Source of the DNA: Nevskia sp. | GTDB taxonomy: Bacteria; Pseudomonadota; Gammaproteobacteria; Nevskiales; Nevskiaceae | DNA length: 64,000 nt | Direction: 5' to 3' | NCBI GenBank assembly: GCA_021732745.1 | Contig: JAKFUK010000001.1 | Coordinates: 694,931 to 758,930 of the forward strand | Part shown: positions 29,451 to 39,007 of the stretch, piece after piece | Layout of the letters: every line of letters begins with the position of its first letter | Numbering within the stretch: position 1 is the first letter of the stretch | The notes under the pieces: model-generated | Databases searched by the model: none | What the model was told of the DNA's origin: nothing | Seen by the model: the letters and a program-made list of their open reading frames with translations, nothing else | Program-made: the position numbers and the translations under genes

Positions 29451-31166
29451 GTGACCGATACCCTGACCGCCAACGCGCGCCGATCCGCGTTGTTCAAGGC
29501 CATCCTCGGACCCGAAAATTCCTTCTACTGGCTGGCCGCGATCTACAGCATCGCGACCTCGGTGCTGACCCTCGCCGTACCGCTGTCGGTCCAGGTGCTG
29601 ATCGCCACCGTGTCCAGCACTGCGCTGCTGCAGCCGGTGGTGGTGCTGTCGCTGATCCTGTTCGCCCTGCTCGGCATGTACGGCGCGCTGTACGCAGTGC
29701 AGGCGCATCTGATGGACCGCTTCGAGCGCCGCTTCTTCGCCCGCTACACGCAGGAAATCGTGCTGCGCAGCGTGCACAGCGCCGTGACCGCCGCGCGGCG
29801 GATGAATCGCGAAGAGCTGGCCAACCGCTTTTTCGAGATCGTCAGCGTGCAGCGCAATGTGCCGACCCTGGTGCTGAACGGCTCGGCAATCCTGATGCAG
29901 GCGATCGTCGGCATCATCGTGGTGTCGGCCTACCACCCGGCGTTCCTGGTGTTCAGTCTGGTACTGGTGCTTCTGGCCTGGCTGATCTGGAAGGTCTGGG
30001 CCGATCGCGCGATCCGCAGCAAGGTCGACGCCTCGAAAGCCAAGTTCAAGGTTGCCCGCTGGCTGGAGGAACTGGCCCGAGTCCATCCCTCGTTCCAGTC
30101 GACGCGCACCATCCGCTACGCCACCCGCGAGGCCGAACATCTGATCGCCGGCTATGCCGAAGCCCATCGCGGCCATTTCGGCCACAAGCTGGCGCAGACC
30201 GTCGGTTATTTCGGCCTCTACGCCGTCGCCAGTGCTGCCCTGCTCGGTGTCGGCGGCTGGCTGGTGATCGCCAACCAGCTGACCTTGGGCCAGCTGGTGG
30301 CCGCCGAACTGATCTTCGCTGCCGTTTTCGCTTCGCTGACCCGGCTGCCGGCCCTGCTCGACAGCTATTACGAGCTGTGCGCGGCGATCGACAAGCTCGG
30401 CGAGTTTCTGGAACTGGAGCTGGAAGAAGCGACGGCCGGGGAAGAAGTGCCCAGCGGCGCTGCCAGCCTGCGACTCGACGCGGCGACCGTTGCCGTCGGC
30501 GAGGTCACGGCGCGTTTCAGCTTCACCGTGCCGGCCGGCCGCAAGGTGTTCGTCAACTGCGACGACGATGCGCTGCGCGACACCCTGCTGGCGATCCTGC
30601 GCCGCCATCAGCCGCTGCAATCGGGGCGCGTGCAGCTCGGTGCTGCCGAACTCGGCGACCTGAATCTGCATCGCCTGCGCGAAGCGGTGCTGGTGGTCGA
30701 TTCCAGCGAGCCGCTGGAACGCACGATCGCGGAAAACCTGGGCCTCGGCGATCCGGCGATCAGCCGCACGGCGATGCGCGAAGTGCTCGACGTGCTCGGC
30801 CTGTCGCCGGCCATCGACCGCCTGCCGAACGGGCTGGATACCGTGCTCGCCCGTTGCGGCGATCCGCTGACGCCGGAGCAGATGCTGCTGCTGCGCGTCG
30901 CTTCCGCCCTGCTCGATCAGCCGCGCCTGCTGATCCTCACCCCGATCGCCGACCGTCTATCGCTGGCGCAGCGGCAAGCCGTGCTCGACGCCGTGCGCCG
31001 TCAGCCGTCGCTGAGCTTCCTGCAATTCAGCCGCCGTGCCGACATCGTCGGTTTCGATGCCGCGCTCGACATCACCGCCACCGAGCAGCGCTGGTTCGAC
31101 GACGTGCGCAGCCTGCCGCCCACCACCCCGGCGCTGCCGTCCGCCGTTCGCGGAGACGCCCGATGA
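29451..31166 (+). CDS. ABC-type exporter protein with degenerate ATPase domain
   Basis: A 571-residue protein starting with GTG. Residues about 15-310 form an ABC exporter membrane domain (helices such as YWLAAIYSIATSVLTLAVPL, VVVLSLILFALLGMYGAL, AILMQAIVGIIVVSAY). The C-terminal part has the length and layout of an ATP-binding domain, but the key motifs are lost. The Walker A position (about 363-375) reads AGRKVFVNCDDDALRD without GxGK. The signature near 470 reads PLTPEQMLLLR instead of LSGGQ. Walker B reads RLLILTPIAD without the Asp-Glu pair. ATP hydrolysis by itself looks impossible. It overlaps the HlyD gene by ATGA and is followed by a TolC-like gene, so it is the inner-membrane part of a type I export system. 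Confidence 0.85.
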   Translation: MTDTLTANARRSALFKAILGPENSFYWLAAIYSIATSVLTLAVPLSVQVLIATVSSTALLQPVVVLSLILFALLGMYGALYAVQAHLMDRFERRFFARYTQEIVLRSVHSAVTAARRMNREELANRFFEIVSVQRNVPTLVLNGSAILMQAIVGIIVVSAYHPAFLVFSLVLVLLAWLIWKVWADRAIRSKVDASKAKFKVARWLEELARVHPSFQSTRTIRYATREAEHLIAGYAEAHRGHFGHKLAQTVGYFGLYAVASAALLGVGGWLVIANQLTLGQLVAAELIFAAVFASLTRLPALLDSYYELCAAIDKLGEFLELELEEATAGEEVPSGAASLRLDAATVAVGEVTARFSFTVPAGRKVFVNCDDDALRDTLLAILRRHQPLQSGRVQLGAAELGDLNLHRLREAVLVVDSSEPLERTIAENLGLGDPAISRTAMREVLDVLGLSPAIDRLPNGLDTVLARCGDPLTPEQMLLLRVASALLDQPRLLILTPIADRLSLAQRQAVLDAVRRQPSLSFLQFSRRADIVGFDAALDITATEQRWFDDVRSLPPTTPALPSAVRGDAR

Positions 31167-32212
31167 GCCGGCAGACACCGAAGTTCGCCGCCGAGTACAG
31201 CGCCCCGTTCCGCACGGTCGAAGCGCTGGTGCCGCCGAAGCCGACGCGCGGCTTCGCGCGGATGATCCTGGTCATCCTCGTGCTGCTGGCCGTGGTGCTG
31301 ACGGTGACGCCGTGGATCCAGACCGCGCCCGGCGCCGGCCAGATCATCGCCCTGGACCCGACCAACCGCGTGCAGTCGGTCACCGCCGCCCTGAACGGCC
31401 GGATCAAGCAATGGCATGTGCAGGAAGGTGCCAAGGTGAAACAGGGCGATCCGCTGGTGGAGCTGACCGACAACGACCCGCGCTATGCCGAACGCCTGAA
31501 GGCCGAACTCGACGCCGCCCTTGCGCGCCTTGAAGCCACCCGCATCGCCAGCGAAATCGCGCTGCTGGATGTCGAACGCCGCCAGCGCCTGTACGACAAG
31601 GGCCTGGCCGCCAAGCGCGATCTGGAAGCGGCCAACATCCGCTGGCGCGAGTTGAAGGCATCCGAAGCCAGCGCCACCTCGGAAGTGGTCAAGGCCGAAA
31701 CGGCGGTGTCGCGCCAGCAGACCCAGCTCATCACTGCGCCGCGCGACGGCATCATCCTCAAGGTGTTCGGCGGCGATACCTCGACCTTCGTCAAGGAAGG
31801 CGAAGTGCTGGTCAGCTTCGCCCCCGAGGTCGGCCCGCGCGCTACCGAACTGTTCGTCACCGGCCTCGACGCAGCGCTGGTGTCACCGGGTCGCGCGGTG
31901 CGCCTGAGCTTTGAAGGCTGGCCGGCCGTGCAGTTCAGCGGCTGGCCGTCGGTGGCGGTCGGCACTTTTCCGGGCGTGGTGCAGTTCGTCGATCCGGCGG
32001 TGTCGATCAACGGCCGCTACCGCGTGGTGGTCAGCGAAAAGCCGGGCGAACCCTGGCCGGACGAGCGCTTCCTGCGCCTTGGTGGCCGCGCCCAGGGCTG
32101 GGTGCTGCTCAACGAAGTGAAGCTCGGCTATGAAATCTGGCGGCAGCTCAACTATTTCCCGCCCGAGCCGACGCCGGCCGTGACCGCCGCCGGCAACGGA
32201 GCCGCGAAATGA
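31163..32212 (+). CDS. HlyD-family periplasmic adaptor
   Basis: A 349-residue membrane-fusion protein. It has a cytoplasmic N-terminus of about 33 residues, one membrane helix (MILVILVLLAVVLTVTPWI) and a first biotinyl-lipoyl half (VTAALNGRIKQWHVQEGAKV, KQGDPLVELTDNDP). A coiled-coil hairpin of about 90 residues follows, then the second lipoyl half (TAPRDGIILKVFGGDTSTFV, EGEVLVSF) and a beta-barrel domain. The start ATG overlaps the ABC gene stop, and the end overlaps the TolC gene start, both as ATGA. It bridges the inner-membrane component and the outer-membrane channel. Confidence 0.92.
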   Translation: MSRQTPKFAAEYSAPFRTVEALVPPKPTRGFARMILVILVLLAVVLTVTPWIQTAPGAGQIIALDPTNRVQSVTAALNGRIKQWHVQEGAKVKQGDPLVELTDNDPRYAERLKAELDAALARLEATRIASEIALLDVERRQRLYDKGLAAKRDLEAANIRWRELKASEASATSEVVKAETAVSRQQTQLITAPRDGIILKVFGGDTSTFVKEGEVLVSFAPEVGPRATELFVTGLDAALVSPGRAVRLSFEGWPAVQFSGWPSVAVGTFPGVVQFVDPAVSINGRYRVVVSEKPGEPWPDERFLRLGGRAQGWVLLNEVKLGYEIWRQLNYFPPEPTPAVTAAGNGAAK

Positions 32213-33633
32213 TGCGGCGCGCAGCAATGTCGGCTGCCAGCCTGGTGCTGGCATTCACGGCAACCGCCCAGACGCCGGCGGCGGTGCCGCTGAATCTCGA
32301 CACCGTGCTGGCGAGCAGCCGCGAACGCTATCCGCAAGTGCTGGCCGCGCAGGAGAAGATCCGCGCACAAGGCGGCAAGCTGCTGTCGAGCGAAGGCGCT
32401 TTCGATCTCTACGCCGAACAGACCAGCAAGAGCCGCCTCAGCGGCTACTACGACGGCCGCTACACCAACGCCAAGATTGTTCAACCGCTCAGCAGTTTCA
32501 GCACCGACGTCTACGGCGGCTACAAAGTGTCCGGCGGCGACTTCCCGATCTACGAGGACGAGGCCTTCACCCTCGATGCCGGCGAGTTCAAGGTCGGCGC
32601 GGTGTTCTCGCTGCTGCGCGACCGCGACATCGACGACCGCCGCGCCAAGCTTCGCGACAGCCGTCTCACCCTGGACCAGACCGAGCTCGACGCCATGCTG
32701 ACCCGCGTTCGCGTGCAGCACGACGCGATGGTCAGCTACGTCGATTGGGTGGCGGCCGGCGAGGCGCTGACCGTCTATCGCGGCCTGCTGCAACTCGCCG
32801 AAGCGCGCGACGACGGTCTCGACACCCGCGTTCAGGAAGGCGATCTGGCGCGCGTCTATCTGAACGAGAACCGCCAGTACATCCTGCGCAGGCGCGGGCT
32901 CGTGGTCGAAGCCGAACGCAAGCTGATTGCGGCTGCGAACAAGCTGTCGCTGTACCTGCGCCATGCGGACGGCACGCCGCGCCTGCCGCAGGAAGCCGAA
33001 TTGCCCGGCCACTGGCCGAACCCGCCGATGCTGGTCGATCCGACCACCGTCGATGCCGCGATCCGTGCCGCGCTCGCCGCCCGTCCCGAAATCGGCGTGC
33101 TGGCAGCCGATCTGGAACGCGAACGCCTGAACCTGGCGCTAGGCAGGAACCTGCTGAAACCGCGCGTCGATCTCAATCTGGAAGCCGCGCGCGATTTCGG
33201 CAGCGGCGACCCGACCCGGGTCGGCACCGATGCCATCGTCCGACTCGATGTGGTGATCCCGATCGAAACCCGCACCGCGCGCGGCCAGATCGACGCCGCG
33301 CAAGCCAACCTGTCGCGCCTGGACCTCGACCGCCGCCTGCTCGAAGAACGCATCGCGGTGGAAATCCGCACGCTGGCCAACGACCTGTCGGCCGCCTACC
33401 GTTTTGTCGAACTGGCGACCCAGGAAGTCGAACAGGCCGACGTGCTGTCGCGCGCCGAACGCGACCGCTTCGCCGAAGGTGCCAGCGACTTCTTCCTGGT
33501 CAACCTGCGCGAAGAAGCCGCGGCCAACGCCCGCGTCCGCGAGATCGAAGCGCATCTGCGCTATCTGGGCGCACTGGCCGATTTCTATGCCGCGACCGTG
33601 CAGCGCGAGCCGCTGGGGTTGGGGGCGAGCTGA
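32209..33633 (+). CDS. TolC-family outer-membrane channel
   Basis: A 474-residue TolC-like protein with a signal peptide (RRAAMSAASLVLAFTATAQ). Two TolC repeats are visible: long coiled-coil helices such as LDQTELDAMLTRVRVQHDAM and the second half LDAAQANLSRLDLDRRLL-type helices, with FFLVNLREEAAANARVREIE near the end. It forms the outer-membrane exit duct for the three-gene export system. The 5' overlap with hlyD (ATGA) indicates coupled translation. Confidence 0.9.
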   Translation: MMRRAAMSAASLVLAFTATAQTPAAVPLNLDTVLASSRERYPQVLAAQEKIRAQGGKLLSSEGAFDLYAEQTSKSRLSGYYDGRYTNAKIVQPLSSFSTDVYGGYKVSGGDFPIYEDEAFTLDAGEFKVGAVFSLLRDRDIDDRRAKLRDSRLTLDQTELDAMLTRVRVQHDAMVSYVDWVAAGEALTVYRGLLQLAEARDDGLDTRVQEGDLARVYLNENRQYILRRRGLVVEAERKLIAAANKLSLYLRHADGTPRLPQEAELPGHWPNPPMLVDPTTVDAAIRAALAARPEIGVLAADLERERLNLALGRNLLKPRVDLNLEAARDFGSGDPTRVGTDAIVRLDVVIPIETRTARGQIDAAQANLSRLDLDRRLLEERIAVEIRTLANDLSAAYRFVELATQEVEQADVLSRAERDRFAEGASDFFLVNLREEAAANARVREIEAHLRYLGALADFYAATVQREPLGLGAS

Positions 33634-33651: not shown

Positions 33652-33948
33652 TCAGGGAATGCGAATCCCCGTTTCCCGCTGATGGCGTACGGCGAGGATC
33701 AGCACGCAGTCTTGCGCAGGCTCGTCGCTGTAGAGCGCGACATAGCCGCTGCGCCCGCGCGAGATGATCAGCTCCCGCAAACCCGCCTCGGCACTGCGCC
33801 CGATCAAGGGGTGGTTGGCGAGCACGTCGACGGCTTCCGCGGTCAGGTCGATGGTCGCGAGCGCGGCGGCCGGATTCGCCTCGATCAGGAAATCGGTCAG
33901 CCGCTCCAGGTCGTCCATCGCTCTGACTGCGTAAATCAGTCGCGCCAA
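33652..33948 (-). CDS. ParE/RelE-family toxin
   Basis: A 98-residue protein starting with TTG at 33948. It has the ParE fold pattern: ARLIYAVRAMDDLERLTDFL, a helix with ALATIDLTAEAVDVLANHP, then LIGRSAEAGLRELIISRGRSGYVALYSDE and the final strand CVLILAVRHQRETG. ParE toxins inhibit gyrase; RelE toxins cut mRNA; the sequence here is closer to ParE. It overlaps the upstream antitoxin gene by 13 bases, the usual order antitoxin then toxin. Confidence 0.85.
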   Translation of the reverse strand: MARLIYAVRAMDDLERLTDFLIEANPAAALATIDLTAEAVDVLANHPLIGRSAEAGLRELIISRGRSGYVALYSDEPAQDCVLILAVRHQRETGIRIP

Positions 33949-34220
33949 CGTCCAGCCTCCGGCTTGCGCGTTGGCTGACCACGCGCGCGGCTGCGCAGGT
34001 GGTCATGCACCGCCGCCGCGTCGACACCCAGCCCGGTTTCGAAGGCATCCGCCCGCGCCGCCACGGCATCGGCAACGAACGCGGCACGCAGTTCGGCTGC
34101 CAGCACCGCGGAGCGAATCGCCTCGACCATGAACGCATGCGTGCTGACCCCGTCGCGACGAGCCGCGCCGGCCGCCAGTTGCTTGAGGTCGTCAGGAATC
34201 TTGAGCGAGGTGGTGGACAT
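33936..34220 (-). CDS. Ribbon-helix-helix antitoxin (CopG/ParD type)
   Basis: A 94-residue protein. The N-terminus STTSLKIPDDLKQLAAGAAR is a ribbon-helix-helix DNA-binding motif (strand TSLKIP, then helices). The C-terminal half is an extended, charged segment expected to wrap the toxin. It precedes and overlaps the ParE-like toxin gene. A palindrome 24 bases upstream of its start is a probable autoregulatory operator. Confidence 0.85.
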   Translation of the reverse strand: MSTTSLKIPDDLKQLAAGAARRDGVSTHAFMVEAIRSAVLAAELRAAFVADAVAARADAFETGLGVDAAAVHDHLRSRARGQPTRKPEAGRWRD

Positions 34221-34263: not shown

Positions 34264-34488
34264 TTAGAGACCGCAGGTTCAACGCGTTCACTGAGGCCAT
34301 CCGCCAGCGGCGGGGTCATCAGGATGCAAAGCCAACGCTAATTCCATCAACGACTTGGGACACCGATACAACTTCGTGACGAATTCGTTGGAAATCCGTG
34401 AGGACTGGCTAACGCGTGGATGCGAGGGTTCTGCTGTCGCCGACAGCACCGTGTGCTTCGTGGCGGCAAACCATCGGAGACACAAGAC

Positions 34489-35118
34489 ATGAACAGGATT
34501 CGAGTCGTCGCAGCTTCCATTCTTCCTGCCGCCATCGGCCTGCTTCTGACTGGCTGCGCCGTATTTACCCCACCGATCGAGAAACCGATCATCGAAGACA
34601 AGTCGCATGCCTCAGGCAAGGGTGCAAAAGTCGCCGTGTTCTCGACGACCGCTGCCCGCCGCAGCGTACTGGTCCAATTCCCGAAAGGTGCCGTGGCTGG
34701 GAAAGTCTGCGCCGAGGCACCACCTGATACCGCCGACGCCCTCATCAGCAGCCTGACCTTCGCGGCCGGGCTGAAGGCGAAATCGGCGCAGGCCGAGGGC
34801 GAAGCAAAGGCAGAACTGAACCGCCAACTCGCGACCACGGTGAATGCGCTACTCGACCGCTCCCAAGGCTTGCAGCTGTTTCGTGATGGTGCTTTCCACC
34901 TCTGCCTTGCATGGCAGAACGGCATCATCGACGGCGCGACCTATGTGTCGCAGTACGTCGTCTTGCTCGACAAGACGTCCGCGTTGATCGGCGAAGAAAT
35001 CAAGCTCAAGGGCTCCAGGACGACTGAAAAGGCCGCAAAGGCGGACGCAACTTCGGCGAAAACTGACAAATCCGCAGTCACGAAACCCGTCACCGGCACC
35101 GCAGCAACTGGCCCGTGA
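34489..35118 (+). CDS. Predicted lipoprotein of unknown function
   Basis: A 209-residue protein. The signal peptide ends in a lipobox (IGLLLTGCA), so Cys 22 is probably lipidated. The mature part has KGAKVAVFSTTAARRSVLVQ near its start, an Ala/Lys/Glu-rich middle helix (KSAQAEGEAKAELNRQLATT) and VSQYVVLLDKTSALIGEEI. It ends in a low-complexity Lys/Thr/Ala tail, possibly interacting with peptidoglycan. I do not recognise the family. GGAG upstream supports ATG 34489. It stands alone between a toxin-antitoxin pair and the XRE/ICMT region. Confidence 0.75.
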   Translation: MNRIRVVAASILPAAIGLLLTGCAVFTPPIEKPIIEDKSHASGKGAKVAVFSTTAARRSVLVQFPKGAVAGKVCAEAPPDTADALISSLTFAAGLKAKSAQAEGEAKAELNRQLATTVNALLDRSQGLQLFRDGAFHLCLAWQNGIIDGATYVSQYVVLLDKTSALIGEEIKLKGSRTTEKAAKADATSAKTDKSAVTKPVTGTAATGP

Positions 35119-35168
35119 CCGGCCTATTTACCGGCAATGGATGAGACGCCTGTGGCTCCCAATCCGCG

Positions 35169-35414
35169 TCAGGGGGAGTCGGCGTCCGACTCCGCAAGCA
35201 AGGCACCGGCCGCAAGCCCGAGCGCGTCGCTGACCAACTGCAGGCTGTCGATCGAGATCGCCTGCACACCGTTTTCCACTCGGTTGATGAAAACCAGCGA
35301 CAAGCCCGAGTGCTCGGCGAGCTTTTCCTGGGTCCAGCCTCTGGCGGCTCTGGCCGCCCTGAGATTTTGCGAAAAGGCCCGGCGCAGGCGTTGTGGATCG
35401 GCTCGTCGGGACAT
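35169..35414 (-). CDS. XRE-family transcriptional regulator
   Basis: An 81-residue single-domain Cro/C1-type helix-turn-helix protein: FSQNLRAARAARGWTQEKLA, HSGLSLVFINRVENG (recognition helix) and SIDSLQLVSDALGLAAGALL. It is divergent from the ICMT-acyltransferase-oxidase operon, with 92 bases between the two starts, so it is the natural candidate regulator of that operon. Confidence 0.9.
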   Translation of the reverse strand: MSRRADPQRLRRAFSQNLRAARAARGWTQEKLAEHSGLSLVFINRVENGVQAISIDSLQLVSDALGLAAGALLAESDADSP

Positions 35415-35446
35415 GGCCGACAGCCTGAGTTTTTCGCCAGAAACAT

Positions 35447-35459
35447 CTATATCTTATAG
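35447..35459. promoter_or_regulatory. Palindrome in the XRE/ICMT divergent promoter region
   Basis: CTATATCTTATAG has perfect five-base arms (CTATA/TATAG) around TCT. It lies in the AT-rich 92-base region shared by the XRE gene and the divergent three-gene operon, and is a plausible XRE operator or part of a -10 element. Confidence 0.4.
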
Positions 35460-35506
35460 GACACATTCGATTTTCTATCCCGACGTCCAACGCTACTGGT
35501 GAAGCG

Positions 35507-36103
35507 ATGATTCAACACCTGAACCCTGCGGAATCCGGGATCTTGCATCTCGGAAATTTCGCCCTTGCCAGCATCAATCTCGCGATCTTCAGCTGGGCGA
35601 TCCGCGGCTACTTTCGTCCGGCCGTGGACGGTGGCCAGCGGCTCAAGTTCGCCGTCGTCTGTGGCATCGCCTGTACCGTCTTCACGCCGATCGCGTTCTG
35701 GCTTTGGGTGCCTGACTCGCCAGCAGTTGCGGCGGTTGCTTTGCCGCTCTACGCCGGGTCTGCCGTGTTGTTCATCTGGGCTGCCACGACCAACCGCAAT
35801 CAACGTCTGGCGCTGGCCTTGACCCGGGAGGGGCCGACCCACCTCGTTATCACAGGCCCGTATCGTCACCTGCGTCATCCGTTCTACACCGCGTACCTGT
35901 TGACCTGGCTGGCGGGCGTAGTGGCGCTCCAGCACCTGGCAATGGTGGTGCCGTTGATTGCGATGGGGGCGATCTACTGGATCGCGGCGAACGACGAGGA
36001 ACAGCGCTTTCTCGATGACGATCGCTTCGCCGCCGCCTACCGGCGCTACATCGGCTCGACCGGACGCTTCGTGCCGAAACTCGCGGCCGGAGCACGACCA
36101 TGA
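35507..36103 (+). CDS. Isoprenylcysteine carboxyl methyltransferase-like membrane enzyme
   Basis: A 198-residue integral membrane protein with about five helices. The ICMT/PEMT-family signature is GPYRHLRHPFYTAYLLTWLA near residues 120-140, followed by the Glu of AANDEEQRFLDDDRFAAAYR and RRYIGSTGRFVP; this is the SAM-binding half. Upstream helices include FAVVCGIACTVFTPIAFWLW. The family methylates carboxyl groups or lipid-linked amines at the membrane. It is the first gene of an operon in which each gene overlaps the next by ATGA. The substrate is unknown; a lipid product of the next gene is an attractive guess. Confidence 0.85.
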   Translation: MIQHLNPAESGILHLGNFALASINLAIFSWAIRGYFRPAVDGGQRLKFAVVCGIACTVFTPIAFWLWVPDSPAVAAVALPLYAGSAVLFIWAATTNRNQRLALALTREGPTHLVITGPYRHLRHPFYTAYLLTWLAGVVALQHLAMVVPLIAMGAIYWIAANDEEQRFLDDDRFAAAYRRYIGSTGRFVPKLAAGARP

Positions 36104-37221
36104 ACCTCGTGTTCCGGGAAGTCACGGAGGCGCAGGAACGCGATGCGGTGGCCCGCCTGCGCTACCGCATCCATGTCGCAGAGCTGGGCAAGCGGTCTGC
36201 GGAAGCTGACCACGTTCGCGAGATGCTGGTCGACGCGCACGACCTCGACAGCGTGCTGCTCGCGGCATTCGATGGCGAAGCACCGGTCGGTACCGTGCGT
36301 CTCACTCCTGGAACAGCCATCACACCCGACAGTGCCTGGTGGCGCTTCTATCAGTTCGACGAGTTCTGCGACTACGGCGACAGTGCGCGCTCGGTGACTT
36401 CCAGGCTGATGGTGCTCCCCGAACTGCGCGGCTCCCTGGTCGCCGCGCAATTGCTGGCGATGGCATACCAGCGCGGCCGCGAACTCGGCACCGTCTTCAA
36501 TTTCATGCACTGTGCGCCGGGTCTGGTAGCCATCCACGAGCAGATGGGCTTCCGCCGCTACACGAATGGCGCTCGGGACCCCGAAGTGGGCTATCGCATT
36601 CCGATGGTGCTGGTCGCTGATGACAGGTCTTATCTGTCATCACAGCGCTCGCCGTTCGCCGGGCTATCGCTCAAATATTCGTCTGATCCACGCAATGCCG
36701 CGTGGTTCATGCAGCGCTTCGGAACGCGGTGCGGGTTGTCGACCGCGCGAACCCTGGGCGTCGCCCGCTTCGTTGAACTGAACGCGGAAGGCGGCGGACA
36801 GAACCGCTCACGCGCGCTCACTGGACTTGATGACAACGAACTCGCCGTCGTGCTTGAAAGCGCTGTCCTGCATCAATTCGAACCGCAGTTTCGCGTGTTG
36901 AAGCGCGGCGACCGCGGCGGAGACCTGTTCCTGATCCTTCAGGGTGAGGTCACCGTCGGCGCGAATGCTTCTTCCACCCACTCACCGGCAGCGGTGATCG
37001 GTCCCGGCGACAGCTTCGGCGAGTACGCCTATCTGGGTGGCAACACCTGCGGTGCCAATGTCACGGCGCTCGCTGCGGTCACGGCGATCTCGCTCAGCCA
37101 AGAATCGTTTGGAAAATTGCAGCGCAAGCATCCGGCGCTGGCGTTCCGGCTGGTCCTCAATCTGGCGCTGGCGGCCAGCCATCGCTTTGAAATCACTCAT
37201 CTTCAGGAGCTTGCTGCATGA
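36100..37221 (+). CDS. GNAT-fold N-acyltransferase fused to a cyclic-nucleotide-binding-like domain
   Basis: A 373-residue two-domain protein. Residues 1-205 resemble FeeM/autoinducer-synthase-type N-acyltransferases: ARLRYRIHVAELGKRS, DAHDLDSVLLAAFDGEAPVG, TVRLTPGT, SRLMVLPELRGSLVAAQLLA, and the aromatic/FNFMHCAPGLVAIHEQMGFR block. Such enzymes join a fatty acyl group to an amino acid or amine. Residues about 235-365 form a cAMP-receptor-like barrel (VLKRGDRGGDLFLILQGEVT, GPGDSFGEYAYLGGN). In its phosphate cassette FGE is kept, but the usual PR-T/S-A is GANVTA, so the ligand-binding Arg is missing. It overlaps both neighbours by ATGA. Confidence 0.8.
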   Translation: MNLVFREVTEAQERDAVARLRYRIHVAELGKRSAEADHVREMLVDAHDLDSVLLAAFDGEAPVGTVRLTPGTAITPDSAWWRFYQFDEFCDYGDSARSVTSRLMVLPELRGSLVAAQLLAMAYQRGRELGTVFNFMHCAPGLVAIHEQMGFRRYTNGARDPEVGYRIPMVLVADDRSYLSSQRSPFAGLSLKYSSDPRNAAWFMQRFGTRCGLSTARTLGVARFVELNAEGGGQNRSRALTGLDDNELAVVLESAVLHQFEPQFRVLKRGDRGGDLFLILQGEVTVGANASSTHSPAAVIGPGDSFGEYAYLGGNTCGANVTALAAVTAISLSQESFGKLQRKHPALAFRLVLNLALAASHRFEITHLQELAA

Positions 37222-37898
37222 CCGTCATCAACGGCCTCGCCACGATACGCACGATCACCGACCTTGATCGGCTGGTCGACGACTGCGTATCGCGAATGAC
37301 CACCACGCTGGCTTGGCGTCTGTTGGACGATGAAGCCTTCCGAGCCGCGCATTACCAGCGCCTGATGCGCTTCATCTATCACCAGACGGTCAGCGCACCG
37401 CTGACCTTTGCACTGGCCGGGGCCAACTGCGGGCCTCGGCACGCTGTAATCCGCGACTACCTGCTGGACCATGCAGTCGAGGAGAAGGATCATTGGAAGT
37501 GGGCGCGGGATGATCTGGCCGCCCTCGGTGACGACATCAGCGGCATTGCCGACGAAGCTGCCCCGACCAGCGTCGCCGCCTTCGTGGCGTTCAATTTCCA
37601 TCTCGCCCACAAGGCCCCGTTCGCGCGGATCGGCACCGCGTATTTCCTGGAAACCATGAGTGCCCGACTCGGCCCCGATACCGCGAGGCGCATGGCTCGG
37701 CAGGCTGCTTTGACCGCCGACCAGATGGTGTTCTTCGTCGGGCATGCTGAATCGGATCAAGGTCACTCGGCCGATCTGCGTCGGATCATCACCGCCGCCG
37801 CACCCAGCGAAACGGAATACGGCATGCTCGGCTGGGCGGCGCAGACCAGTGCCGACCTGTATCGAATGATGTACGAGGAAGCGCTTTCTGGAGCTTGA
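37218..37898 (+). CDS. Heme-oxygenase-like diiron oxidase family protein (TenA/PqqC fold)
   Basis: A 226-residue all-helical protein. Candidate metal ligands are arranged as in HDO enzymes: E88/E89 and H92 in LDHAVEEKDHWKWARDDL, E145 in YFLETMSARLG, and H176, E178, D180 and H183 in GHAESDQGHSADLR. H55 and H85 also line this core. Family members such as UndA, BesC and SznF use O2 to cleave C-C bonds or hydroxylate nitrogen. The retained E-x2-H and D-x2-H pairs suggest an active oxidase. As the third gene of the ICMT/N-acyltransferase operon, it probably oxidises the acylated product. Confidence 0.82.
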   Translation: MTVINGLATIRTITDLDRLVDDCVSRMTTTLAWRLLDDEAFRAAHYQRLMRFIYHQTVSAPLTFALAGANCGPRHAVIRDYLLDHAVEEKDHWKWARDDLAALGDDISGIADEAAPTSVAAFVAFNFHLAHKAPFARIGTAYFLETMSARLGPDTARRMARQAALTADQMVFFVGHAESDQGHSADLRRIITAAAPSETEYGMLGWAAQTSADLYRMMYEEALSGA

Positions 37899-37972
37899 TC
37901 GGACGCGTTGCAAGGCGGGCGCAAGTGCGATGCAGCCCTCTGACGACGGGTTGCTCGGGTATCGTTGCGGCC

Positions 37973-39007
37973 ATGCAAGATTCCCTGTTCCCGGACGCCG
38001 AAGCGCCGCGCGACGAGCGCCCCGCCAGGCGCGCCAAACGATCCGCCGCGGTCGAGCCCGCGCCGCCCGATCCGGCGCACCTCGCGCTGGCGGCGGCATT
38101 GCCGCCCAACCTGCGCCTCGGCACCTCGTCCTGGTATTTCCCGGGCTGGGACGGACTGGTCTGGGATGGCGAGTACGAGCAGGCGCAGTTGTCGAAGCAG
38201 GGCCTGAGCGCCTACGCGCAGCATCCGCTGCTGCGCACGGTGAGCCTGGATCGCGCGTTCTATCGGCCGCTGACGGTCAGCCAGTACGCGGACTACGCCG
38301 CTCAAGTGCCGGACGATTTCCGCTTCGTGGTCAAGGCGCCGAGCCTGATCGCCGATGCCAGTCTCCGCTCGGATGATGGTCGCAGCCTCAGTCACAACGC
38401 GCTGTTCCTCGATCCGGACACGGCCCTGCGGGAGTTCGTACGTCCAGCGCTCGAAGGGCTGGGCCACAAGCTCGGGGCGCTGGTGTTTCAGCTCAGCCCG
38501 CTGCCTGGCTTGATGCTGGCGACCATCGGTCAGCAGATCGCGAAACTCGACGCGCTGCTGGCCGCGCTGCCGGACTTGCGCTTGATTGCGCCGGACGCCG
38601 TCATTGCCGTGGAGGTGCGCAATCCCGAATGGCTGAGCCCGGCGTTCACTGCCGTGCTCAAGCGCCATCGCGCCACTTATTGCCTGGGCCTGCACGCGAA
38701 GATGCCGCCGATCGCCGAGCAGTTGCCGATCCTGCGCGCGCTGTGGCCCAGCCCGCTGGTCTGCCGCTGGAACCTGCACATGAAGCACGGCGCGTTCGGC
38801 TATGAAGCGGCGCGGGAAGAGTACGCTCCGTTCAACCGGCTGGTCGATCCCGATCCGGAAACCCGTCAGCAACTGGCGCGGGTGATTGCAGGCACGGTGG
38901 CCCACGGGGTGCTCGCCTACGTGACCCTGAACAACAAGGCGGAAGGGTCGGCACCGCTGTCGATCGAGGCACTGGCGCAGGCGGTGCTGGACTTGCGCAC
39001 GCCCTGA
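37973..39007 (+). CDS. DUF72 family protein (YecE-like)
   Basis: A 344-residue TIM-barrel-like protein of the DUF72 family. Typical segments are LRLGTSSWYFPGWDGLVW near residue 45, DFRFVVKAPSLIAD, LGALVFQLSPLPG, DAVIAVEVRNPEWLSP, and LVCRWNLHMKHGAFGY. The N-terminus is a charged extension of about 40 residues. The activity of DUF72 proteins is unsettled. The frame is open upstream from 37895, but ATG 37973 gives the usual family start. It is convergent with alkB, with no gap between stops. Confidence 0.88.
   Translation: MQDSLFPDAEAPRDERPARRAKRSAAVEPAPPDPAHLALAAALPPNLRLGTSSWYFPGWDGLVWDGEYEQAQLSKQGLSAYAQHPLLRTVSLDRAFYRPLTVSQYADYAAQVPDDFRFVVKAPSLIADASLRSDDGRSLSHNALFLDPDTALREFVRPALEGLGHKLGALVFQLSPLPGLMLATIGQQIAKLDALLAALPDLRLIAPDAVIAVEVRNPEWLSPAFTAVLKRHRATYCLGLHAKMPPIAEQLPILRALWPSPLVCRWNLHMKHGAFGYEAAREEYAPFNRLVDPDPETRQQLARVIAGTVAHGVLAYVTLNNKAEGSAPLSIEALAQAVLDLRTP

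What the first reader, a model, noticed from the sequence alone, without database searches (positions are those of the whole stretch)
35169..37898. Compact operon of ICMT-like methyltransferase, N-acyltransferase/cNMP-like fusion and HDO oxidase with divergent XRE regulator
Three genes overlap by ATGA at both joints, so their products are made together. The middle protein looks like a FeeM/autoinducer-type N-acyltransferase fused to a cyclic-nucleotide-binding-like domain. The third is a heme-oxygenase-like diiron oxidase with the E-x2-H (E89, H92), E145 and D180/H183 ligands. The first is a membrane SAM methyltransferase of the type that esterifies carboxyls. Seen together they could make an acylated amino acid, oxidise it (decarboxylation or N-oxidation are known HDO reactions) and methylate it at the membrane. 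I know of no described pathway with this combination. The small-molecule proposal is inference.
Basis: partly seen in the sequence, partly recalled or inferred. Interest (0 to 1): 0.85.

Follow-up and report, generated by a model that had tools for sequence, protein, structure and literature searches.

The report
Paired N-acyltransferase and diiron oxidase operon
A small bacterial operon pairs an enzyme that probably attaches an acyl chain to an amine or amino acid with a probable iron-dependent oxygen-using enzyme, and the same pairing recurs in distantly related bacteria, sometimes beside a quorum-sensing receptor, which suggests an uncharacterised route to oxidised acyl-amide lipids or signals.

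Summary
Three genes overlap by ATGA at both joints: an ICMT/PEMT-type membrane methyltransferase, a FeeM/LuxI-type N-acyltransferase (NAT) fused to a cNMP-like domain, and a heme-oxygenase-like diiron oxidase (HDO). A divergent XRE gene lies upstream. The full trio was found in only one other genome, a congener; there a lipoprotein gene joins it and the XRE gene is absent. The NAT-HDO pair recurs more widely: a second locus in this genome, a gammaproteobacterium of another family, a member of another class, four genomes of one genus in the same family, and plasmids of the Pseudomonas syringae group and Agarilytica. One related HDO sits beside a GH3 amido synthetase. The other 39 HDO places of the class search had neither. 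In the four same-family genomes an autoinducer-type LuxR precedes HDO-NAT; the P. syringae cluster has one too. Best reading: the NAT makes an N-acyl amino acid (or amine), the HDO oxidises it, and here the ICMT-like enzyme methylates it. Known NAS+nitroreductase pathways use this logic with a flavin oxidase. I found the HDO version in no paper searched. Product, substrate and reaction are inferred.

The parts
34489..35118 (+). Small lipoprotein (lipobox LLLTGC, Cys23, by eye), no Pfam family
   Evidence: Pfam: nothing over cut-off (scanned from 34420). 66% identical in congener G015, where it ends 4 nt before the methyltransferase gene. A distantly related lipoprotein precedes the NAT in two other congeners by 15 nt; the two sequence families are joined through a G019 protein hit by both profiles.
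35169..35414 (-). XRE/Cro-type HTH regulator, 81 aa, divergent
   Evidence: Pfam HTH_3 5e-13. No homologue in the 14-kb G015 locus.
35447..35459 (+). Perfect inverted repeat CTATA-TCT-TATAG in the 92-bp gap between the XRE gene and the operon; candidate operator (inference)
   Evidence: Only match of CTATANNNTATAG in 64 kb; 0 of 100 shuffles had one. The pattern was chosen after seeing the site, so this count is post hoc.
35507..36103 (+). ICMT/PEMT-type integral membrane SAM methyltransferase, 198 aa
   Evidence: PEMT 5.3e-8, ICMT 2.4e-5; ICMT structure 4a2n 3e-8 over residues 102-192; hydrophobic segments.
36100..37221 (+). FeeM/LuxI-type N-acyltransferase domain (about residues 1-195) fused to a C-terminal cNMP-binding-like domain (about 240-360)
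   Evidence: FeeM 3.5e-7, cNMP_binding 6.7e-13. NAT-domain profile matches an autoinducer synthase 5w8c 3.8e-5 and 4-coumaroyl-HSL synthase 6wn0 2.4e-4. Cys317 stands where three other NAT-cNMP fusions have Arg.
37218..37898 (+). Heme-oxygenase-like diiron oxidase (HDO), 226 aa; predicted ligands E89, H92, E145, H176, D180, H183; clade-typical H85
   Evidence: Haem_oxygenas_2 7.5e-12; profile vs 3dde_A 1.9e-40, MboA 9ypi 3.4e-10, CADD 1rcw 8.7e-10, UndA 4wwj 3.3e-6; ligand mapping through MboA.

Best explanation
The NAT and the HDO are successive enzymes of one small biosynthetic module. The NAT (FeeM/LuxI type) transfers an acyl chain to the amino group of an amino acid or amine. The HDO holds the product by its carboxylate at a diiron site and oxidises it with O2, most likely by C-H abstraction near the carboxylate giving a dehydro- or hydroxy-N-acyl amino acid. 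In this locus the ICMT/PEMT-type membrane enzyme then methylates the product, most likely the carboxyl as a methyl ester, and a lipoprotein may serve export or envelope retention. The product is a lipid-like signal or envelope lipid. Shown: domains, metal-ligand motif, gene overlaps, recurrent pairing. Inferred: shared substrate, reaction order, chemistry and purpose.
For: Pairing: a FeeM-like or GNAT-type NAT is next to an HDO in the window, in G015 and at a second own-genome locus; in G176 of another family, overlapping, and in G806 of another class, convergent; in four genomes of one genus; and in the three plasmid records read, two of the P. syringae group and one Agarilytica, 1 and 18 nt apart. 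A related HDO in G119 overlaps a GH3 acyl-amido synthetase instead. HDO tree: the seven window-type HDOs then known to be beside a NAT, plus the GH3-adjacent one, are split from 34 others at 96/87; three of those 34 were later found NAT-adjacent too. Concordance: (own second locus, G806) and (P. syringae, Agarilytica) are sisters in both the HDO tree and the NAT tree. The other 39 of 43 HDO places in the class search showed no NAT or GH3. Metal site: six ligands match MboA. Five structurally known 3H/3C HDOs bind substrate at Fe1 (PMC13108848, section 5), by the C-terminal carboxylate in MboA; an N-acyl amino acid has a free carboxylate. Methyltransferase link: also beside a NAT in G008. Precedent: NAS + O2-dependent flavin desaturase (+ methyltransferase) clusters.
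Against: No product is known. The NAT family is broad: only 1 of 30 FeeM-family loci with flanks in the class had an HDO neighbour, and 2 of 25 non-own loci of the window-type NAT profile did. In 51 chosen genomes, nearly all NAT-bearing, 24 HDO places lay in 18 genomes and 7 of the 24 are beside a NAT; several genomes hold both apart. The closest NATs in the genus (G005, G008, G011) have no HDO beside them. The P. syringae acyltransferase is only weakly FeeM-like (0.038), as are those of the four-genome group (9.6e-4, 0.034, none for the one tested of the last two). Deeper branching of the NAT and HDO trees does not agree, and HDO pairing needs 5 label changes on the NAT tree. Structure models were too poor to test fold or pocket (pLDDT 46 and 35.5).
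Confidence: 0.6

Rival explanations
1. The pair makes a quorum-sensing signal: the NAT is an autoinducer synthase (LuxI-like), the HDO tailors the signal, and LuxR receptors read it. In the window lineage the receptor has been replaced by another regulator or the signal is read elsewhere.
For: A LuxR lies upstream of HDO-NAT in 4 of 4 loci of one genus, two of them near-identical; Pfam on one of the four gives Autoind_bind 1.5e-18 and GerE 4.9e-17. LuxR with Autoind_bind (2.3e-23) in the P. syringae plasmid cluster, a LuxR-ASII-ASI arrangement like LuxR-solo group 12 (PMC4338825, passages). NAT profile matches AHL synthases.
Against: No LuxR of these types found in the stretches held around the window, G015, own second, G176, G806 or Agarilytica pairs. 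The methyltransferase and lipoprotein are not usual signal-system parts (recalled).
Confidence: 0.2
2. The operon makes or remodels a membrane aminolipid: the NAT acylates an amino acid head group (as OlsB does for ornithine), the HDO hydroxylates or desaturates it, and the PEMT-type enzyme N-methylates it.
For: PEMT is the better Pfam match of the methyltransferase (5.3e-8 vs ICMT 2.4e-5); weak OlsB hit of the NAT (0.0076, far below its cut-off); lipoprotein in the unit in G015.
Against: No second acyltransferase among the unit's four genes; the other HDO-NAT pairs seen lack a methyltransferase of this type beside them, except G015.
Confidence: 0.12
3. The NAT is a regulatory acetyltransferase (like mycobacterial Pat, cNMP domain + GNAT) and the HDO is an unrelated neighbour.
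For: GNAT + cNMP architecture; weak NCBIfam match to Pat over the cNMP part (0.0065); the best solved-structure match of the NAT domain is a small acetyltransferase, 5jph 3e-7.
Against: FeeM and AHL-synthase matches; Arg of the cNMP cassette lost; paired NATs without any cNMP domain (own second locus, G806); recurrent HDO adjacency in several lineages.
Confidence: 0.06

Closest known systems
tyz cluster (TyzA-TyzC-TyzB, acyl-oxazolones) and NasY + nitroreductase + ThiF (+ methyltransferase) clusters for N-acyl dehydrotyrosines
   Same: FeeM-like acyltransferase followed by an O2-dependent oxidase acting on the N-acyl amino acid, with a methyltransferase in some clusters (passages of PMC10404671 and PMC12479983).
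   Different: The oxidase there is a flavin enzyme of the nitroreductase superfamily; here it is a diiron HDO. No ThiF or nitroreductase was matched among the ten window proteins scanned, and the methyltransferase is of the ICMT/PEMT membrane type.
HDO superfamily (UndA, MboA, CADD, AetD, SznF)
   Same: Complete 3H/3C ligand motif; profile matches to MboA, CADD and UndA.
   Different: Closest solved relative is 3dde_A, titled a domain of unknown function. His85 stands at the MboA Tyr82 position (proposed base there), where, of the 39 class places without NAT or GH3, 32 have Tyr, 3 Asp and 4 show no motif of this form.
FeeM / AHL synthase N-acyltransferases
   Same: Domain-level match; R21, D45, R67, R102, R110 invariant in the eight aligned NATs.
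   Different: Fused to a degenerate cNMP domain; partner is an HDO.
LuxR-solo group 12 (P. syringae, P. brassicacearum, P. fluorescens; PMC4338825)
   Same: Same LuxR-ASII-ASI order as the plasmid cluster with GNAT+HDO.
   Different: The paper has no occurrence of 'heme oxygenase', 'acetyltransferase' or 'redox enzyme'. That the plasmid LuxR belongs to that group is inferred from gene order.

Membership tests
Heme-oxygenase-like diiron oxidases (HDO) | Six metal ligands, 3 His + 3 carboxylate | tested here: met
   E89, H92, E145, H176, D180, H183 align with MboA Glu86, His89, Glu143, His172, Asp176, His181; invariant in 17 HDOs. A sequence test; no metal was seen.
Heme-oxygenase-like diiron oxidases (HDO) | Seven-helix heme-oxygenase fold | tested here: inconclusive
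   Sequence profile matches 3dde_A at 1.9e-40, but the own model is poor (pLDDT 46) and Foldseek gave nothing below E 0.4, with AetD and UndA ranked first and second.
Heme-oxygenase-like diiron oxidases (HDO) | Fe2 (or Fe/Mn) binding and O2-dependent activity | not testable with these tools
   Needs purified protein.
FeeM-type N-acyl amino acid synthase | Match to FeeM model above curated cut-off | tested here: met
   30.6 bits vs cut-off 27.
FeeM-type N-acyl amino acid synthase | Forms N-acyl amino acids from acyl-ACP or acyl-CoA | not testable with these tools
   Needs assay.
AHL synthase (LuxI family) | Autoind_synth family match | tested here: not met
   No Autoind_synth match listed for the window protein. 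The NAT-domain profile does match AHL-synthase structures: works like, not filed as.
cyclic-nucleotide-binding domain (functional) | Phosphate-binding cassette with Arg (recalled) | tested here: not met
   Cys317 in the window protein and its G015 counterpart; Arg in the L095, L058 and L060 fusions.
ICMT/PEMT methyltransferases | Pfam PEMT/ICMT above cut-off, membrane segments | tested here: met
   33.7 vs 25 and 25.1 vs 24 bits; hydrophobic segments near 48-66, 73-91 and 138-161.
protein-S-isoprenylcysteine O-methyltransferase (equivalog) | NCBIfam NF040696 cut-off 160 bits | tested here: not met
   54.3 bits.
tyz / NasY pathways | Nitroreductase-family flavin oxidase beside the NAS | tested here: not met
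   The three operon proteins and seven neighbours scanned matched no nitroreductase family; the oxidase is an HDO. The membrane-fusion gene upstream was not scanned.

The most novel reading that the evidence does not exclude
NAT-HDO is a self-standing two-enzyme module for oxidised N-acyl amino acids that uses a diiron HDO where known pathways use flavin oxidases. Its LuxR-coupled versions are a signal system not found in print here, giving at least one group of 'LuxR solos' a candidate cognate ligand pathway. The window operon is a methylated, lipoprotein-associated version.
Probability: 0.35. Interest if true: 0.85.

Novelty: new variant of a known kind. Interest (0 to 1): 0.62.

Why it matters
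HDOs are estimated at over 10,000 members with about a dozen characterised (PMC13108848, section 4). Partner genes are one way to guess substrates. A recurrent pairing with amide-forming enzymes predicts the substrate class for one HDO clade. Its LuxR-linked versions would make the ligand of some orphan LuxR receptors directly testable.

Tried and rejected
Rejected: the XRE gene as a conserved part (absent from the G015 locus). The DUF2799 lipoprotein upstream of the G176 pair as a relative of the window lipoprotein (no convincing profile match, Pfam DUF2799). HDO pairing as a general feature of FeeM-type NATs (1 of 30 loci). Direct homology of the two lipoprotein families was not found by hmmsearch and was weak by hhalign (probability 18.8%); the link through G019 is transitive. 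The lipoprotein family was found in 6 of 41 genomes (own included), beside a NAT in 4; in G019 and G024 no NAT, HDO or methyltransferase was found in the flanks held. P0002 had no plasmid match and A2 no viral relative. Structure models were unusable. Promoter scan: no sigma-70-like site in 34300-38100.

Papers: ten searches. Listings were capped: one search listed 20 of 1,826 papers, 10 of 848, 15 of 38. No listed title or abstract start joins an HDO with an N-acyltransferase or LuxR. Three listed papers that hold such words together were opened at the passages: PMC7602753, PMC13061610 and PMC10849742 do not join them there. Most subscription papers are not in the library.

Rows: all 43 HDO places were looked at, with about 1.5 kb on each side, less where a contig ends. 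Of the 26 order places, all came with flanks; one (L030) is cut by its contig end. Of the 24 plasmid HDO records, the neighbourhoods of 3 were read. Of the places, 30 came with flanks. In one search, 51 genomes were searched of 84 first meant. The GNAT sensors were profiles of my own, so other GNAT types beside HDOs could be missed.
Full report
What is there. The window lies in contig 1 of a 4.0 Mb genome that was not named. Reading +: methyltransferase 35507-36103, NAT-cNMP 36100-37221, HDO 37218-37898, both joints ATGA; XRE gene on the minus strand 35414-35169. The 92-bp gap between XRE and operon holds one perfect palindrome, CTATATCTTATAG at 35447-35459, the only match of that pattern in 64 kb, a pattern chosen after seeing it; an XRE operator is an inference.

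The HDO. A profile of 17 HDOs matches 3dde_A (1.9e-40), MboA (3.4e-10), CADD (8.7e-10) and UndA (3.3e-6) among solved structures. The MboA ligands Glu86, His89, Glu143, His172, Asp176 and His181 (PMC13185094, passages and section 10) fall on E89, H92, E145, H176, D180 and H183, which are invariant in the 17. The residue seven before the ligand His is Tyr82 in MboA, proposed there as a base; here it is His85. It is His in the eight HDOs of the window's type, Gln in a third group, L029/L031/L033, and, among the 39 class places with neither NAT nor GH3, Tyr in 32, Asp in 3 (L155, L198, L199) and without a motif of this form in 4. That this position acts as a base here is inference. The own structure model is too poor to use (pLDDT 46).

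The NAT. Pfam FeeM and cNMP_binding are both over their cut-offs. A NAT-domain profile (8 sequences) matches the autoinducer synthase 5w8c (3.8e-5) and the 4-coumaroyl-homoserine lactone synthase 6wn0 (2.4e-4), behind the small acetyltransferase SACOL1063 (5jph, 3e-7); a FeeM/LuxI-like enzyme within the GNAT fold is supported, its substrate is not. The cNMP-like domain keeps the GE motif but has Cys317 where the fusions L095, L058 and L060 have Arg; canonical cNMP binding is doubtful in this lineage and possible in the others.

The methyltransferase and lipoprotein. The methyltransferase matches ICMT 4a2n over residues 102-192 (3e-8) and is far below the isoprenylcysteine equivalog cut-off. 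In congener G015, identified by its contig length as the Lake Pavin MAG contig JAPLSB010000019.1, the order is lipoprotein, 4 nt, methyltransferase, NAT, HDO, with no XRE gene. Protein identities to the window: lipoprotein 66%, methyltransferase 71%, NAT 82%, HDO 90%, with dN/dS 0.10, 0.21, 0.13 and 0.06 (NG86; dS is 0.8-2.4, so saturated for the lipoprotein and high for all). In G008 a related methyltransferase sits beside a related NAT without HDO. In G005 and G011 a distantly related lipoprotein precedes a related NAT by 15 nt.

The pair. With the NAT profile A2, 15 of 85 genomes of the order matched at 1e-3, 12 of 369 of the class and 12 of 398 of the phylum at 1e-8. Of 25 non-own NAT loci from the last two searches, 2 (G176, G806) have an HDO next door. 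With P0003, 23 of 85 order genomes matched, 26 places; 7 of these 26 have a FeeM-like NAT adjacent: window, G015, own second locus, and L029, L031, L033, L034. With an HDO profile of NAT-adjacent members (A7), 39 of 369 class genomes matched, 43 places: 3 have a NAT (window, own second locus, G176), 1 (G119) a GH3 amido synthetase, and 39 neither. A profile made from NAT-adjacent HDOs favours finding such members; G119 was the one new member of the His85 type that it found. In 51 chosen genomes Haem_oxygenas_2 was found at 24 places in 18 genomes; 7 of the 24 are beside a NAT (own genome two, G015, G176, G806, G054, G063), and several genomes hold NAT and HDO apart. On plasmids, 24 records carry an HDO like P0003 (23 Pseudomonas, 1 Agarilytica). 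In the 3 read, a GNAT-type gene lies 1 nt (Pseudomonas, two records) or 18 nt (Agarilytica) upstream; Pfam FeeM is 0.038 for the former and 1.6e-8 for the latter. The Pseudomonas cluster also holds LuxR, anthranilate synthase I and II, a CoA ligase, a flavodoxin-like reductase, an EamA transporter and a hydrolase. No expected rate was computed; with few HDOs and NATs in thousands of genes, chance adjacency in so many lineages is implausible (inference).

Joints. Own second locus: HDO and NAT overlap by GTGA if the NAT starts at that GTG. G176: by 4 nt with a TTG start or 1 nt with ATG. G119: GH3 and HDO by GTGA if the HDO starts at that GTG (start codons are my reading). G806: the two genes are convergent, not an operon.

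Trees. In the HDO tree of 42 rows the eight HDOs of the window type (seven beside a NAT, one beside GH3) are separated from 34 others by one branch (96/87), with long branches as a caution; L029, L031 and L033, found later to be NAT-adjacent too, lie among the 34. In the NAT tree of 48 rows, 10 HDO-adjacent NATs need 5 label changes against a shuffled mean of 9.3 (0 of 500 shuffles as low), so pairing is clustered but not of one origin. The own second locus and G806 (another class) are sisters in both trees, as are the P. syringae and Agarilytica pairs, which suggests that these partners travelled together; the deeper branching of the two trees differs.

LuxR. In L029, L031, L033 and L034 a LuxR lies about 140-300 nt upstream of HDO-NAT (HDO places); L033 and L034 are near-identical. 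Pfam was run on the copy in L183, the same gene as in L034 (Autoind_bind 1.5e-18, GerE 4.9e-17); the others match it at 8.5e-88 or better. The P. syringae cluster LuxR has Autoind_bind 2.3e-23. A survey of LuxR solos lists LuxR-ASII-ASI as group 12 (PMC4338825, passages). With these three LuxR queries no such gene was found in the 64-kb window.

How it likely works. NAT acylates an amino acid or amine. HDO, which in five known 3H/3C cases takes its substrate as a ligand to Fe1 (PMC13108848, section 5), oxidises the acyl amino acid. The methyltransferase finishes it at the membrane. If carboxyl methylation is right, the oxidation must spare the carboxyl group. The known analogues are TyzA/TyzC/TyzB (PMC10404671, passages) and NasY/nitroreductase/ThiF with methyltransferases (PMC12479983, outline and passages). 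Everything after the domain assignments is inference.

Novelty. Ten literature searches and three papers opened for the purpose (listed in Tried and rejected) showed no paper that joins an HDO to an N-acyltransferase, but the listings were capped and the library holds open-licence papers only. I file it as a new variant of a known kind (NAS + oxidase), with the LuxR-linked form the most novel reading.

Noticed in passing
L022:5218-6689 (own genome, G000:C1 about 623217-624688): Second HDO + FeeM-like NAT pair in the same genome, overlapping ORFs, no cNMP domain; sister to a pair in another class.
   Followed up: partly
L029, L031, L033, L034 / L183:4192-6795: LuxR (autoinducer-binding type) - HDO - NAT gene order in four genomes of one genus of the same family; a second LuxR lies further upstream in L183 (8476-9249).
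   Followed up: partly
L149:493-9135 and L151:492-9135: Pseudomonas syringae-group plasmids carry LuxR, anthranilate synthase, CoA ligase, GNAT, HDO, flavodoxin-like reductase, EamA transporter and hydrolase together.
   Followed up: partly
L154:1423-3650 (G119): Window-type HDO overlapping a GH3-family acyl-amido synthetase gene.
   Followed up: partly
window 29451-33633 +: Export genes upstream: ABC-type membrane protein (Pfam below cut-off), a membrane-fusion-like ORF (by eye) and a TolC-like outer membrane protein (OEP 3.3e-21), syntenic in G015; possible exporter of the product.
   Followed up: no
window 33652-34220 -: ParE-type toxin gene with a small upstream gene, likely a toxin-antitoxin pair.
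   Followed up: no
L186:24-1175: A lipoprotein of the window's family in G024 lies beside transposase-like ORFs (assigned by eye).
   Followed up: no
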